Part shown: positions 312 through 4,898 of the stretch, piece after piece
Layout: each line of letters opens with the position of its first letter
Position numbering within the stretch: position 1 is the first letter of the stretch
Assembly (NCBI RefSeq): GCF_036226445.1
Contig: NZ_CP108474.1
Coordinates: 5,518,001-5,582,000 of the forward strand
Origin: Streptomyces sp. NBC_01255
GTDB taxonomy: Bacteria > Actinomycetota > Actinomycetes > Streptomycetales > Streptomycetaceae
DNA length: 64,000 bases
Reading direction: 5' to 3'
Notes under the pieces: model-generated
The model's input: the letters and a program-made list of their open reading frames with translations, nothing else
The model's database searches: none
What the model was told of the DNA's origin: nothing
Made by a program: the position numbers and the translations under genes

Positions 312-668
312 CTACTCCTCCGGCGGGCGCCCGTTCGCCCGGATCAGATCGCGGCCGAACTCGATCATCTTCAGGGCGTAGTCCTCGGTCCACTCCGCCC
401 GCTCGGCGACGTCCGCCGCCGTCAGCCGGTCGAACCGGCGCGGGTCCGCCAGCTGCGCCGCCGCGATCGCCTGGAACTCCGTCGCGCGGTCCGTCGCCGC
501 GCGGAACGCGAGCGTCAGCTCCGTCGCCCGGGCCAGCAGCTCGCGCGGGTCCTCTATCGACTCCAGGTCGAAGAAGTGCTCCGGATCGGCGGTCGCCTCG
601 GCAGGCTCGAAGACCAACGGTGCCGGCCGAAGCCGTCGCTGTCCGCTCCGCTCCGCGGGTTCCGCCAT
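312..668 (-). CDS. Conserved hypothetical protein, 118 aa
   Basis: Small soluble acidic protein beginning MAEPAERSGQRRLRPAPL. The start is fixed by a very strong ribosome-binding site, AGGAGGAGAAG, directly upstream of the ATG at 666-668. After a Pro/Arg-rich first 20 residues comes a mainly helical region, with AERAEWTEDYALKMIEFGRDL near the end. No catalytic motif or membrane segment is visible. It follows the nuclease/helicase cassette on the same strand after about 120 bp containing an 18-bp perfect palindrome (695-712), so it is probably a separate transcription unit. Function unknown. Confidence 0.75.
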   Translation of the reverse strand: MAEPAERSGQRRLRPAPLVFEPAEATADPEHFFDLESIEDPRELLARATELTLAFRAATDRATEFQAIAAAQLADPRRFDRLTAADVAERAEWTEDYALKMIEFGRDLIRANGRPPEE

Positions 669-787: not shown

Positions 788-2140
788 TTAGACGGTGGCG
801 GGGTCCCACACCACCCGGTGTTCCGCCAGGTGGGAGAGGACCGCGTGGTTCGCCTCCCAGCCGTCGGGGAAGGACACCGCCGCGCCGAGCCGTACCGGCT
901 CCGTCGACGGGTGCTCGTCGAGGAGCTCCGTGACGCCCGCGCGGCACACCACGACGCAGGCGTGCCGGTGCCGGGAGGCCAGCACGCACAGGCGGCCCGT
1001 CTCCAGGTGGAACGCGGTCGCGTCCGGGCGCCCGGACAGCGGATGGAGGACGACCGTGACGTCGTACTCGCGCCCCTGGAGCCGGTTCGCGGTGTCCACC
1101 GTCACGCCCGTCACCCCGAGACCCGCGAGTGCCGCCCGGACCGCCGCCGCCTGGTCGCGGTGGGCGGTGCCGACCGCGACCCGGTCGGGCGTCAGGGGCA
1201 CGGGGTGTTCGGCCTGCTCCGAGACCGCGGCGCCGCCCCGGTCCAGGAGCCGCCGGACGACGAGGGCGACCGCGCCGACCGCCTCGGGGTCGGTGCGCGG
1301 GGTGGTGCGGGCCGGCAGTTCGAGCAGCCCCCAGCCCGACTCCGCCGCCTCGTCGAGGACCCGGTCGGGACCCGAACCGTCCGACGCCACGCCGAAGGAG
1401 AGCTTCCGGTCCCCGGGCCCGGTGCCGCTGCGGAACGGCGTGAACGGGTAGAAGGCGTCCGACACCAGCGGCGCCGCCGAGGCGGGCAGCCGCCAGGAGA
1501 CCGGCAGCCGGTGCTGCGGAAGCTCCGGATTGTGCGCGAGCAGGGTGGAGACGGCCGAGCCGGACGGGTCGTACGAGAGGCCCGCCCACTGCTCCGCGCC
1601 CACCACCGAGAACGGGTCGAGCTGCCCGGGGTCGCCCACGAACAGCGCCCGCTCGAAGAGCCCCGCCACGGCGAGCAGCGCGTCGGAGCGCATCTGGTAC
1701 GCCTCGTCGACGATCGCGTGCGCCCACGGCTCGACGTTCTTCACGTGCGCCCACTTGGCGGAGGTCGAGAGGACGACCGGCAGCCCCGCCAGCTCTCCGG
1801 GCTTCGCCGACTTCCGTACGTTGGCCAGGTCGTCGAGCGCCTTGTCGTACGGGTCGCTGTCGTTCGAGTGCAGCCGGCCCACCTCCAGGCCGGGCTCCTT
1901 CTCGGCGAGCCGCAGCACCAGGTCGTCCACCTGCGCGTTCGTCTGCGCGACGACCATCAGGGGGCGCCCGGCGGCGGCCAGTTCGAGCGCCGCCCGGACC
2001 ACCAGGGTCGACTTCCCGGCCCCCGGAGGCGAGTCCACGACGACACCCCGGGAGGTGCCGTGCAGGGTGTCGGCGAGGATGCCGTCCGTCGCCCGCCCGG
2101 CCTCGGCGGACGGATCGAAACGAGGTTCAACGGTCGTCAC
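788..2140 (-). CDS. Superfamily 1 DNA/RNA helicase-like ATPase, third gene of the nuclease-helicase cassette
   Basis: 450-residue protein with SF1 helicase motifs in order: Walker A SPPGAGKST (about residues 37-45), motif Ia VVAQTNAQVDDLV, Walker B HAIVDEAYQM (DEAY 145-148), motif III FVGDPGQLDPF (168-177), motif V VDTANRLQGREYD and motif VI LASRHRHACVVV. This resembles the compact AAA/Upf1-type SF1 core with no accessory domains. The start is the GTG at 2138-2140, which overlaps the upstream stop as GTGA and implies translational coupling. It probably supplies the motor for the nuclease encoded two genes upstream. A role in repair, recombination or defence is inference; the helicase fold itself is clear. 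Confidence 0.88.
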   Translation of the reverse strand: MTTVEPRFDPSAEAGRATDGILADTLHGTSRGVVVDSPPGAGKSTLVVRAALELAAAGRPLMVVAQTNAQVDDLVLRLAEKEPGLEVGRLHSNDSDPYDKALDDLANVRKSAKPGELAGLPVVLSTSAKWAHVKNVEPWAHAIVDEAYQMRSDALLAVAGLFERALFVGDPGQLDPFSVVGAEQWAGLSYDPSGSAVSTLLAHNPELPQHRLPVSWRLPASAAPLVSDAFYPFTPFRSGTGPGDRKLSFGVASDGSGPDRVLDEAAESGWGLLELPARTTPRTDPEAVGAVALVVRRLLDRGGAAVSEQAEHPVPLTPDRVAVGTAHRDQAAAVRAALAGLGVTGVTVDTANRLQGREYDVTVVLHPLSGRPDATAFHLETGRLCVLASRHRHACVVVCRAGVTELLDEHPSTEPVRLGAAVSFPDGWEANHAVLSHLAEHRVVWDPATV

Positions 2141-3729
2141 AGCACGTCCTCGGGGGTCACGGCGTCGGGCAGTTCGGGGAGGTCGGCCCGGCGCGGCGGT
2201 CCGCCGTGCGTCCAGGGCGTCTCCTCCGGGTCCGGCAGCTTCGGCCCGACCCGCTGCTCGTGCTCGAACAGCGTCCAGGCGATCCGCTCGCCCTTCTCCG
2301 GCACCGAGCCCTCCGCCGGCTCCTTCGACCGCCCCATCTTGTCCAGGAGCCGCAGCACCAGCGAGCCGTCCTCCTCGTGCCGCACGAACTCCGCAGCCTG
2401 CGGCTTCCCGTCGAGCGAGCGGAACACCTTCGCCTTCTCCGCGAGGTGCGGCCGGTCCTCCGTGCGGACCGTGAGCAGCGGGCGCGGCGCGGGCCGCTTC
2501 GACTCCGTCCACGCCATCGTCACCTCGACCACCTCCGCCACGAACGCCTCGCCCGCGAGCCGTCGCCCCGCCAGGACCAGCGGATCGTCGAGCGCCTCGT
2601 GCGCCTCCAGCTGACCCTGTGCCTGCTCGCGGGCCGCGAGCTTCGAGGCCGCCCCCACGGCGTCGTCCCGGCGCGGCTGCGGCGGCTCGCCGGCCGCGAT
2701 CCGGTCCCGGTGGCCGGTGAACGACCAGCGGTCGCGGGTCCAGCGGTCCTCGACCCTGGCGCCCTCCGGCAGCTCCCGCAGCAGGTCCAGCGCCTGCCAG
2801 ACGAGGTCCCAGGTCGGCTTCAGCTGCGAGGCGACGAGCCGCCGGATCTCCCGCTCGGCCCGGTGCAGCTCGCCGAGGCCCGTGTCGGCCGCCTCGCCGT
2901 CCTCGGCCGCGCCGAGCGCCTGCCGGGCCCGGTCGTACCGCTCGATCGCGGGCGCCAGGAGCCGGTTGTCGAAGGCCGGGTCGGTGGCGGGCCCGGCGGG
3001 CGGGCACAGCAGCTGCCCCCGCGCGTCCCGGCCGGCCTCGGCCCGCAGCGCCCCCTCGGGCCCCGACTCCCCGTCCCGCGGGTCGATCCAGGCGAGCAGC
3101 GCACCCAGGTGCTGGTCCTCCAGGGAGGACTGGCCGGTCGCCCAGTGCCGGTTGAGCAGGTCGGTCGCGGCAAGCAGCAGCGAGGAGCCGGGCACCCGCG
3201 CCCGCTCGCCGAAGTGCGTCAGCCACCGCCCGAGCAGCGGTACACGCGGCGGCGCCGGGAACGGCGTCTCCGGGTCCTGCTCGGCCGTCCGCCGGAACCG
3301 CGTCGACCGCCCGAGCAGCCGTACGTACTCGATGCCCGCCCGGCTCGGCACGATCAGCTGCGGCGCGTCCGCGCACAGCTCGACCTCGACCTTCACCTTC
3401 TTGCCGGTCTCGGGGTCGACCTCGCTCCGCTCCGCCGCTTCGACGACGTCCGTGAACGAGTCGACGTACGGCAGGACCTCCTCCGCCAGATCGGCGAGGA
3501 ACGCGAAGCGCAGGTCCCGGTCCCGGGGCTGCGCCACCACCAGGAGCCGGGGCTCGTCGCGGTCGGTGCCGACGAGCGCGCCGAGCGGCGCCCCCGCCTC
3601 ACCGGCCGTCGTCAGCGGTACGAGGACGAGCGGCCGCGCGGACACGTGCCGGTGGCGGACGGTGGCCAGCGGCTGGGCACGGCCCGACTCGACGGCCTCC
3701 ATCCGGGCGAGCGCGGAGATCAGCGACAT
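2137..3729 (-). CDS. Uncharacterised 530-aa protein, middle gene of the nuclease-helicase cassette
   Basis: Soluble protein starting [21 protein letters not shown], with no signal peptide, transmembrane span or catalytic motif I recognise. The N-terminal half is mixed, and a charged helical segment follows (about residues 255-330). A region near residues 390-470 looks like a beta-rich fold (LVLAGRRLAGEAFVAEVVEV and LLTVRTEDRPHLAEKAKVF). It overlaps the nuclease stop by 10 bp upstream and the helicase start by 4 bp downstream, so all three are probably made from one mRNA in related amounts. That coupling suggests a shared complex, perhaps with this protein as scaffold or DNA-recognition subunit. 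Confidence 0.85.
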   Translation of the reverse strand: MSLISALARMEAVESGRAQPLATVRHRHVSARPLVLVPLTTAGEAGAPLGALVGTDRDEPRLLVVAQPRDRDLRFAFLADLAEEVLPYVDSFTDVVEAAERSEVDPETGKKVKVEVELCADAPQLIVPSRAGIEYVRLLGRSTRFRRTAEQDPETPFPAPPRVPLLGRWLTHFGERARVPGSSLLLAATDLLNRHWATGQSSLEDQHLGALLAWIDPRDGESGPEGALRAEAGRDARGQLLCPPAGPATDPAFDNRLLAPAIERYDRARQALGAAEDGEAADTGLGELHRAEREIRRLVASQLKPTWDLVWQALDLLRELPEGARVEDRWTRDRWSFTGHRDRIAAGEPPQPRRDDAVGAASKLAAREQAQGQLEAHEALDDPLVLAGRRLAGEAFVAEVVEVTMAWTESKRPAPRPLLTVRTEDRPHLAEKAKVFRSLDGKPQAAEFVRHEEDGSLVLRLLDKMGRSKEPAEGSVPEKGERIAWTLFEHEQRVGPKLPDPEETPWTHGGPPRRADLPELPDAVTPEDVL

Positions 3730-4898
3730 GCGGGGTCCTCCTCGGACAGCGAGGACGCGAAGTCCGGGGCCTTCACGCCCGGCGCCGACGCCCGGTCCAG
3801 CGCCTCCTGGCGCAGCGCCCGCGCCCGGCGCAGGGCCGCCACCGCCGGATCGTCCGGGTCACCGGCCTCCCCGCGCGCCGCCGCCAGGACCGCGCCGACC
3901 GTCGTGAGGCCGCCCAGCTCACCCCGTACCGCACGGCCCAGGGTCTCCACCGCGCCCGCTTCCCGGGCCCGCGCCCGGCAGTGGAAGGCCAGCTCGCAGG
4001 CGGCCAGGCACTCCGGCGCGTACGCGTGGGGCACGGACTCCACGGCCTCCGTCAGCTCCGCCGGCGAGCACCCCTCCACATCGAAGGTGGTGCCCTCCGG
4101 CAGGGCGTCCGCGATCTCCTCGATCCGGGTCAGCCGGGCCAGCTGCCGCCGGGTCACCGACCGCTGCTTGCGCACGTCCACGACGGAGGCCGTCGGCACG
4201 TTCGAGAAGTCCTTCGGGCAGACGAGGAGCACCGAGTGCGCGACCCGCGCGCCCTCGGTCACCGCCGCCATCCGTTCGAGCGCGAGCACGTACACGGCGG
4301 ACTGCCGGGCCGCCGCGCCCACCTTCGACGCGTCGGCCGCGCCGTCGATCATCGGGAAGGACTTGATCTCGACGACCGTCCACCGCCCGTCGGGATCGAC
4401 CACCACCGCGTCCGGCTCCAGATAGACCGGGGAGCCGGCCACCTCCAGGGCGAGCAGCGGATGGTCGAGCAGCGCCCATGTCCCCGCCCCGGTCGCCTCC
4501 CGCAGCGCGAGCGCCGTGCGGGCCGTCCGCCCCTGGGGTCCGGCCGCGGCCAGATCGGGCACGGAGACCGCGCCGGGCTCCTCGACGCCGAGCAGGCGCA
4601 GCAGCTCACGGCCGCCGTCCGCCTTGACCTTCGCCTCGAAGGAGTTGCCCCGCATGATCGCGAACTGCGACTGGCCGAAGGGCGCGGGGGAGCCCAGCTT
4701 CGACGCGAGCGCCGCCTTGTCGACCCCGGCGCCGTCGAGCAGTGCCCGCCGTCGGCAGCCCGGATTGGCGGCGAGCGCGGCGAGCGCCCGCGCGTCCAGA
4801 GCGCGCGGCGGCGTGCCCGGTCCGCGCAGCTCGGCCAGAGCCTGTCGGAGTGTCGTCTGCGCGGGTCGGGGCAGTCCGGTGTCCAGGGATGCGCTCAC
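3720..4898 (-). CDS. PD-(D/E)XK nuclease of the RecB/Cas4/AddB type with a probable Fe-S cluster
   Basis: 392 residues from the GTG at 4896-4898. Nuclease motifs: RGNSFEAKV (84-91), the Asp of YLEPDAVVV (D163), the E-x-K of VVEIKSF (E177, K179) and QSAVY (Q199-Y203), the Q-x3-Y motif of RecB-family nucleases. C48 in [10 protein letters not shown] precedes the nuclease core, and C297, C301 and C307 follow it, spaced C-x3-C-x5-C. AddB and Cas4 use one early plus three late cysteines to hold a 4Fe-4S cluster, so the arrangement points to a Fe-S nuclease. First gene of the cassette. In-frame GTGs at 4919 and 4922 are alternative starts; none has a convincing ribosome-binding site. Confidence 0.85.

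What the first reader, a model, noticed from the sequence alone, without database searches (positions are those of the whole stretch)
788..4898. Fe-S PD-(D/E)XK nuclease, unknown protein and SF1 helicase in one coupled cassette
Three genes with overlapping ends encode a Cas4/AddB-like nuclease (C48, C297/C301/C307 plus D163, E177, K179, Q199-x3-Y203), a 530-residue protein with no recognisable domain, and a compact SF1 helicase. Nuclease plus helicase recalls AddAB or defence modules, yet here both subunits are short and separate and the third component is unknown. I know of no described system with this exact three-part layout. It is the best candidate for an undescribed end-processing, repair or defence complex in this window.
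Basis: partly seen in the sequence, partly recalled or inferred. Interest (0 to 1): 0.75.

Follow-up and report, generated by a model that had tools for sequence, protein, structure and literature searches.

The report
Three-gene split DNA2-like helicase-nuclease
Three neighbouring Streptomyces genes that are kept or lost together look like one DNA-unwinding and DNA-cutting machine (like the DNA2 enzyme) divided into three separate proteins; most sampled Streptomyces carry it, and copies of it also sit among antiviral genes.

Summary
NUC (3720-4898), MID (2137-3729) and HEL (788-2140) are real, overlapping minus-strand genes. Searched separately over 246 genomes of the class, each is found in exactly the same 38, 21 of 22 in this genus. 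In Micromonospora-type genomes HEL lies apart from NUC-MID yet is present in 8 of 8 tested. The four Fe-S cysteines and the helicase motifs are conserved. MID's confident model (pLDDT 88.6) resembles a PolB exonuclease domain plus the stalk and 1B barrel of Upf1-like helicases, the part HEL lacks. NUC folds like Cas4, AddB and DNA2 nucleases; HEL's best solved relative is DNA2. Gene order thus matches the domain order of fused bacterial DNA2-like ('Bad'-type) proteins. Best reading: a three-subunit, split DNA2-like helicase-nuclease, a new variant of a known kind. MID's link to the fused family rests on moderate fold scores and order; its sequence signal is weak. Ten neighbours of the core copy gave no specific defence hit. 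A Streptomyces paralogue clade sits beside defence genes where scanned, with eroded nuclease residues but intact cysteines.

The parts
3720..4898 (-). NUC: Cas4/AddB/DNA2-type PD-(D/E)XK nuclease with a predicted iron-staple Fe-S site (C48, C297, C301, C307); 392 aa, GTG start
2137..3729 (-). MID: 530 aa subunit; about 31-250 (alignment runs to 378) PolB-exonuclease/RNase H-like, probably without catalysis; about 251-391 long helices (stalk); 388-489 beta-barrel like domain 1B of Upf1-like helicases. The boundary at 250 is mine.
788..2140 (-). HEL: compact SF1B (Upf1/DNA2-like) motor, 450 aa, GTG start, Walker A at residue 40, no 1B/stalk region of its own
   Evidence: Pfam AAA_11/AAA_12. PDB best DNA2 8e-10, SMUBP2 1e-9, UPF1 1e-5. 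Motif residues in 94-99 of 99 sequences, except the first and sixth residue of the last motif, 51 and 73.

Best explanation
NUC, MID and HEL are the three subunits of one DNA2-like helicase-nuclease, a gene-split counterpart of the fused bacterial 'Bad'-type enzymes. HEL is the 5'-to-3' RecA-type motor. MID docks on HEL and lends it, in trans, the stalk and 1B barrel that Upf1/DNA2-like helicases carry in the same chain, while MID's PolB-exonuclease-like (probably dead) domain bridges to NUC. NUC, held together by a Fe-S cluster, cuts the single strand threaded ahead of the motor. The complex would load on 5'-ended single-stranded tails or flaps, unwind, and trim or cut. In Streptomyces the core copy most likely does genome maintenance (5'-flap, replication or repair intermediates), alongside a separate AdnAB-like pair. 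A Streptomyces paralogue clade has been taken into defence islands, where the motor and Fe-S scaffold are kept but nuclease catalysis is mostly lost. Shown: the gene set, co-occurrence, conservation, predicted folds, collinearity. Inferred: physical complex, polarity, substrate, cellular role.
For: The three profiles hit the same 38 of 246 genomes. NUC lies directly before MID in 117 of 119 loci (the two exceptions, L114 and L121, begin at or near a contig start) and HEL directly after MID in 94 of 119; the other 25 are 21 Micromonospora-type loci, three with an inserted gene and one broken HEL. HEL is present outside the NUC-MID stretch in 8 of 8 Micromonospora-type genomes tested. Pairwise distances correlate at r 0.91-0.96 over 97 loci. 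NUC fold. MID fold. HEL against DNA2/SMUBP2/UPF1; against the fused helicase part E 3e-22 and 9e-24. MID C-terminal half against the fused barrel: E 0.006, 0 of 60 shuffled decoys as good. Order of fused proteins: RecB-type nuclease, RNase_H_2, barrel region, helicase. Bad biochemistry (Fe-S, 5'-3' helicase, ssDNA endonuclease): PMC7430649 (abstract, passages, sections 14 and 22 read). No specific defence hit among 10 core-locus neighbours.
Confidence: 0.65

Rival explanations
1. The window's own set is mainly an anti-phage or anti-plasmid defence system that became fixed in Streptomyces.
For: Paralogues lie beside HmaA/HmaB (E 0 and 2e-114), PprRE and PprPDDEXK, PprDinG, Wadjet JetC2 (E 0) and SMC-like LmuB hits. 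All 8 loci L079-L086 share the Ppr gene clusters beside the operon (HMM-tested only in L050/L079). PMC7430649 suggests that Bad may be part of a restriction-like system.
Against: The core copy is in 21 of 22 genomes of the genus, in a conserved neighbourhood, with only generic hits (mad2, SduA) among 10 neighbours scanned. No PADLOC match for NUC or MID.
Confidence: 0.25
2. The three proteins act as a set but not as a split DNA2: the helicase and nuclease are independent enzymes, and MID is an unrelated adaptor whose barrel resembles domain 1B by chance.
Against: The two best barrel matches are Upf1-like helicases (IGHMBP2 9.0, SETX 8.9), the IGHMBP2 match runs from the last stalk helix through the barrel (351-489 on 3-140), HEL lacks exactly this part, and the order matches the fused proteins.
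Confidence: 0.17
3. It is an AddAB/AdnAB-type double-strand-break resection complex.
Against: HEL is Upf1/DNA2-like, not UvrD-like. Two large PDDEXK_1 frames about 5 kb apart exist elsewhere in the genome, taken by me as AdnAB.
Confidence: 0.05

Closest known systems
Bad, bacterial DNA2-like helicase-nuclease (Geobacillus; 'second class' in Mycobacteria and Rhodococcus; PMC7430649, sections read)
   Same: Iron-staple RecB-type nuclease, a central extra domain, SF1B helicase, in the same order
   Different: Bad is one polypeptide; here three genes. Cysteines C-x3-C-x5-C here against C-x2-C-x5-C in 14 of 20 fetched RNase_H_2 proteins. The central domain is alike by fold only.
Eukaryotic DNA2
   Same: Fe-S nuclease and SF1B motor; closest solved relative of HEL
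   Different: Single chain, and per PMC7430649 without Bad's central domain; here split, with a PolB-exonuclease-like domain in MID
COG2251/PF13482 RNase_H_2 proteins with a RecB-type nuclease and tandem AAA (PMC3985635, passages read)
   Same: Domain order; fetched examples share the helicase at E about 1e-22
   Different: MID is not detected by PF13482, and residues 34-40 (LVLVPLT) at the expected first strand hold no Asp/Glu
Cas4-like nuclease next to or fused with UvrD-like SF1 helicase (PMC5704561, passages read)
   Same: Cas4-like nuclease and SF1 helicase in one predicted operon in some bacteria, mostly Clostridiales; fused forms linked to defence loci
   Different: Two components with a UvrD-like 3'-5' helicase; no third MID-like subunit in the passages read
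Cas4 and Argonaute-associated Cas4 (ACE1)
   Same: Nuclease fold and four-cysteine logic
   Different: Here in an operon with MID and HEL; linkage to cas1/cas2 or Argonaute was not searched for
AddAB / AdnAB
   Same: AddB has a Fe-S nuclease of the same fold
   Different: UvrD-like motors fused to the nuclease, not a separate Upf1-like motor

Membership tests
Bad / DNA2-like helicase-nuclease | Iron-staple nuclease: one N-terminal and three C-terminal conserved Cys flanking RecB motifs | tested here: met
   C297/C301/C307 119 of 119; C48 109 of 109 unmasked, ungapped residues. E177 and K179 changed only in the Streptomyces accessory clade; D163 changed in L086, L088, L137. The cluster itself is not testable.
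Bad / DNA2-like helicase-nuclease | SF1B (Upf1/DNA2-like) helicase motor | tested here: met
   (DNA2 8e-10, SMUBP2 1e-9, UPF1 1e-5)
Bad / DNA2-like helicase-nuclease | 1B barrel and stalk next to the motor | tested here: inconclusive
Bad / DNA2-like helicase-nuclease | Nuclease and helicase fused in one polypeptide | tested here: not met
   Separate genes in the window and in the 121 loci read
Bad / DNA2-like helicase-nuclease | 5'-3' translocation and ssDNA endonuclease activity | not testable with these tools
   Needs purified protein
COG2251 / PF13482 RNase_H_2 proteins | RNase_H_2 domain match | tested here: not met
   No PF13482 hit for MID or in the own genome; profile comparison no better than decoys. 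PF13482 also missed the full-length fused protein of G031, so its sensitivity is limited.
AddAB / AdnAB | UvrD-like (SF1A) motor fused to the nuclease | tested here: not met
   HEL matches AAA_11/AAA_12 and DNA2, and is a separate protein
Cas4 | Cas4-like Fe-S exonuclease fold | tested here: met
Cas4 | Linkage to cas1/cas2 | not tested
   No search for cas1/cas2 was made
Known defence systems in PADLOC-DB 2.0 | Match of NUC and MID to a system component | tested here: not met
   0 families up to E 1 for NUC and MID; HEL only partial matches to helicases (best MkoC 9e-9)

The most novel reading that the evidence does not exclude
A DNA2-like helicase-nuclease built from three obligate subunits, in which a separate protein supplies the helicase's 1B barrel and stalk in trans through a dead PolB-type exonuclease domain. 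It is core in Streptomyces and relatives, and has been recruited more than once into defence islands as a motor and Fe-S scaffold with a catalytically eroded nuclease, beside systems with their own nucleases such as pPIWI-RE, and often with a fourth coiled-coil subunit.
Probability: 0.43. Interest if true: 0.78.

Novelty: new variant of a known kind. Interest (0 to 1): 0.62.

Why it matters
It gives an assignable architecture to three proteins found in 21 of 22 sampled Streptomyces genomes; the listed database relatives of NUC and MID are almost all named hypothetical proteins. It suggests that the bacterial DNA2-like enzymes, reported as rare and sporadic (PMC7430649), have a widespread split form in actinomycetes. 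A helicase whose 1B domain sits on another subunit would let motor, strand-separation wedge and nuclease be mixed and regulated separately, which ordinary biochemistry can test. Paralogues that keep the Fe-S cysteines but lose nuclease residues, beside defence genes, offer a natural separation-of-function experiment.

Tried and rejected
AddAB/AdnAB identity: rejected on motor type, and because another pair of large PDDEXK_1 frames lies elsewhere in the genome (naming that pair AdnAB is my inference).

The 'PLuB' and Mokosh hits of HEL are partial helicase matches; a paper search listed 20 papers, none holding 'PLuB system'.

TIGR03491 in the own genome: none. Strict exclusion of split and fused forms: rejected, since G031 has both. 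It is the only one of 38 split-positive genomes with a full-length fused match; the other matches are helicase-only, and two of them (G191, G199) are the HEL genes themselves.

C14 as an essential member: rejected for the window; no homologue in the own genome (one query only) or beside the separate HEL of two Micromonospora-type genomes. C14's ZorF/DUF2894 hits are weak and look like coiled-coil similarity.

Sequence searches of the PDB: the NUC profile hit only engineered proteins on residues 15-90, and a weak 58-residue chain; MID one hit at E 0.78. Viral structure library for MID: no match at E<=0.001.

Papers: of nine searches, (20 of 328 listed; 7 of 7; 15 of 66; 3 of 3; none) bear on this set. 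Read as listings, no title or abstract shown describes a three-gene set of this kind; led to Bad. Searches gave unrelated or general papers. One search showed two passages of PMC3702460 (pPIWI-RE), and its text has 0 occurrences of Cas4, RecB, Dna2 and Upf1. The library lacks most subscription journals and bioRxiv preprints.

Full report
What is there. On the minus strand, NUC (3720-4898), MID (2137-3729) and HEL (788-2140) follow one another with 10-nt and 4-nt overlaps. Pfam sees AAA_11/AAA_12 and related P-loop models in HEL and a sub-threshold PDDEXK_1 in NUC; MID matches nothing above cut-off in Pfam, nothing in NCBIfam and nothing in PADLOC. Each gene has one match in its genome, at about 5.52 Mb of an 8.43 Mb contig.

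Co-occurrence. Profiles of NUC, MID and HEL, each searched over the same 246 genomes of the class, hit exactly the same 38 genomes: 21 of the 22 in the window's genus (Streptomyces, inferred from the top homologues) and 17 others. G234 lacks all three, and four genomes have two places for each profile. In a sample of 149 phylum genomes the NUC query matched seven: five in the class and two outside it at marginal E. After dropping two duplicates (119 loci; one identical pair, L044/L143, remains), NUC directly precedes MID in 117 and HEL directly follows MID in 94. Of the other 25, 21 are Micromonospora-type loci, three (L100, L105, L109) have an extra gene between MID and HEL, and L043 has a broken HEL frame. 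The two loci without NUC (L114, L121) begin at or near the start of their contigs. In 8 of 8 Micromonospora-type genomes tested, HEL is present outside the NUC-MID stretch, about 49 and 36 kb away in the two examined on one contig. So the link is functional, not merely positional. Pairwise distances of the three proteins correlate at r = 0.91-0.96 over 97 loci, though shared ancestry of the genomes alone would give some correlation.

A frequent fourth gene. C14 (250-306 aa in 56 of 59; coiled-coil-like N-terminus) lies directly upstream of NUC on the same strand in 59 of 119 loci and overlaps it in 24. It is at none of the 21 Streptomyces core loci, was not found in the window's genome, nor beside the separate HEL of two Micromonospora-type genomes.

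Why 'split DNA2'. Proteins carrying PF13482 were found in 29 of 118 class genomes. I fetched 20; 18 met my Bad-like test (cysteine triplet before RNase_H_2, then a Walker A); L202 and L208 did not. In the fused proteins the order is RecB-type nuclease, RNase_H_2, a barrel region, AAA_11/AAA_12 helicase, the order NUC-MID-HEL. HEL aligns to the fused helicase at E 3e-22. NUC to the fused nuclease gives only E 0.013-0.04, with 1 of 60 decoys as good. The MID C-terminal half to the fused barrel gives E 0.006 with 0 of 60 decoys; whole MID E 0.019 with 1 of 60; the MID N-terminal half to RNase_H_2 shows no signal (38 of 60 decoys as good). Nine comparisons were run, and mismatched pairs gave 3 to 54 of 60. 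The MID link therefore rests mainly on fold and order. [quoted passage not shown] equating it with the fetched set is my inference. That paper shows for Geobacillus Bad: Fe-S, 5'-3' helicase, ssDNA endonuclease, a central domain of unknown function, and a neighbouring methyltransferase. Split and fused forms rarely co-occur: 1 of 38 split-positive genomes (G031) has a full-length fused protein, one that PF13482 had missed. A rough probability of 0.04 that the 18 Bad-like genomes would avoid all 38 ignores kinship.

Mechanism proposed. HEL moves 5'-3' on single-stranded DNA. MID gives it the 1B barrel and stalk and, through its PolB-exonuclease-like domain, carries NUC. That domain holds no Asp/Glu at the expected first strand (residues 34-40 LVLVPLT), but the nearby E44 is conserved in 120 of 121, so loss of catalysis is inferred, not shown. 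NUC cuts the threaded strand. Complex formation, polarity and substrate are inferred from relatives.

Role. The core locus has conserved neighbours in Streptomyces. Of 10 neighbours scanned (8 in the window, 2 in a relative), two gave only generic hits and none a specific defence hit, which leans towards genome maintenance. A Streptomyces paralogue clade (16 entries, 14 distinct loci, L079-L092) is monophyletic with support 1.0 in NUC, MID, HEL and combined trees. Its neighbours include pPIWI-RE system genes (PprRE and PprPDDEXK tested in L050, PprDinG in L079; the same gene clusters in all of L079-L086), HmaA/HmaB, a type III restriction-like helicase (PADLOC REase_III 4e-7; its 912-aa partner was not scanned), an SNF2/HKD helicase (L084), Wadjet JetC2 (L087), an SMC-like ATPase (L088) and a HEC-05-like protein (L091). 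I chose mostly large neighbours for these scans, so they are not matched in size to the core-locus control, 8 of 9 chosen proteins had a hit at 1e-5 and L093's had none. Several hits (LmuB, DrmD and the like) reflect generic SMC or helicase folds. The PIWI gene itself lay outside the stretches read, and neighbours of L089, L090 and L092 were not scanned. In this clade E177 is changed in 10 of 14 and K179 is Arg in 12 of 14 distinct loci; only L090 keeps both. Neither residue changes in the other 103 entries, while C297, C301 and C307 never change. I read this as loss of cutting with retention of the scaffold and motor. Outside this clade, L100 and the L054/L055 paralogues also have defence-like or SbcCD-like neighbours.

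Verdict. A real, obligate, largely unannotated set; best described as a three-subunit split DNA2-like helicase-nuclease (confidence 0.65), a new variant of a known kind.

Noticed in passing
L079-L092 (e.g. L079:8886-10001 NUC): Streptomyces paralogue clade keeps the Fe-S cysteines but has E177 and/or K179 replaced in 13 of 14 distinct loci; 8 of these loci sit beside pPIWI-RE system genes.
   Followed up: partly
L039:11431-12219 and upstream of NUC in 59 of 119 loci: A conserved gene (C14, coiled-coil-like N-terminus) heads the operon outside the Streptomyces core locus.
   Followed up: partly
L209, L210 (HEL) with L042, L046 (NUC-MID): In Micromonospora-type genomes HEL lies about 36-49 kb away from NUC-MID but is present.
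   Followed up: yes
L100:11579-13912, L109:11577-13916: A gene of about 780 aa (HEC-05-like by PADLOC in L100) is inserted between MID and HEL in two Micromonospora loci.
   Followed up: no
window 312-668 (-): A small gene downstream of HEL on the same strand, found by BLAST in 18 of 20 other Streptomyces core loci; no Pfam, NCBIfam or PADLOC match.
   Followed up: partly
G000:C1:2967364-2973417 and 7008301-7009047: Two neighbouring large PDDEXK_1 frames (probably AdnAB) and a separate PDDEXK_1 match in a 301-codon frame elsewhere in the chromosome.
   Followed up: no
G234 (whole genome): The only one of 22 sampled genomes of the genus that lacks all three genes (5.8 Mb, the smallest of the 22).
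   Followed up: no
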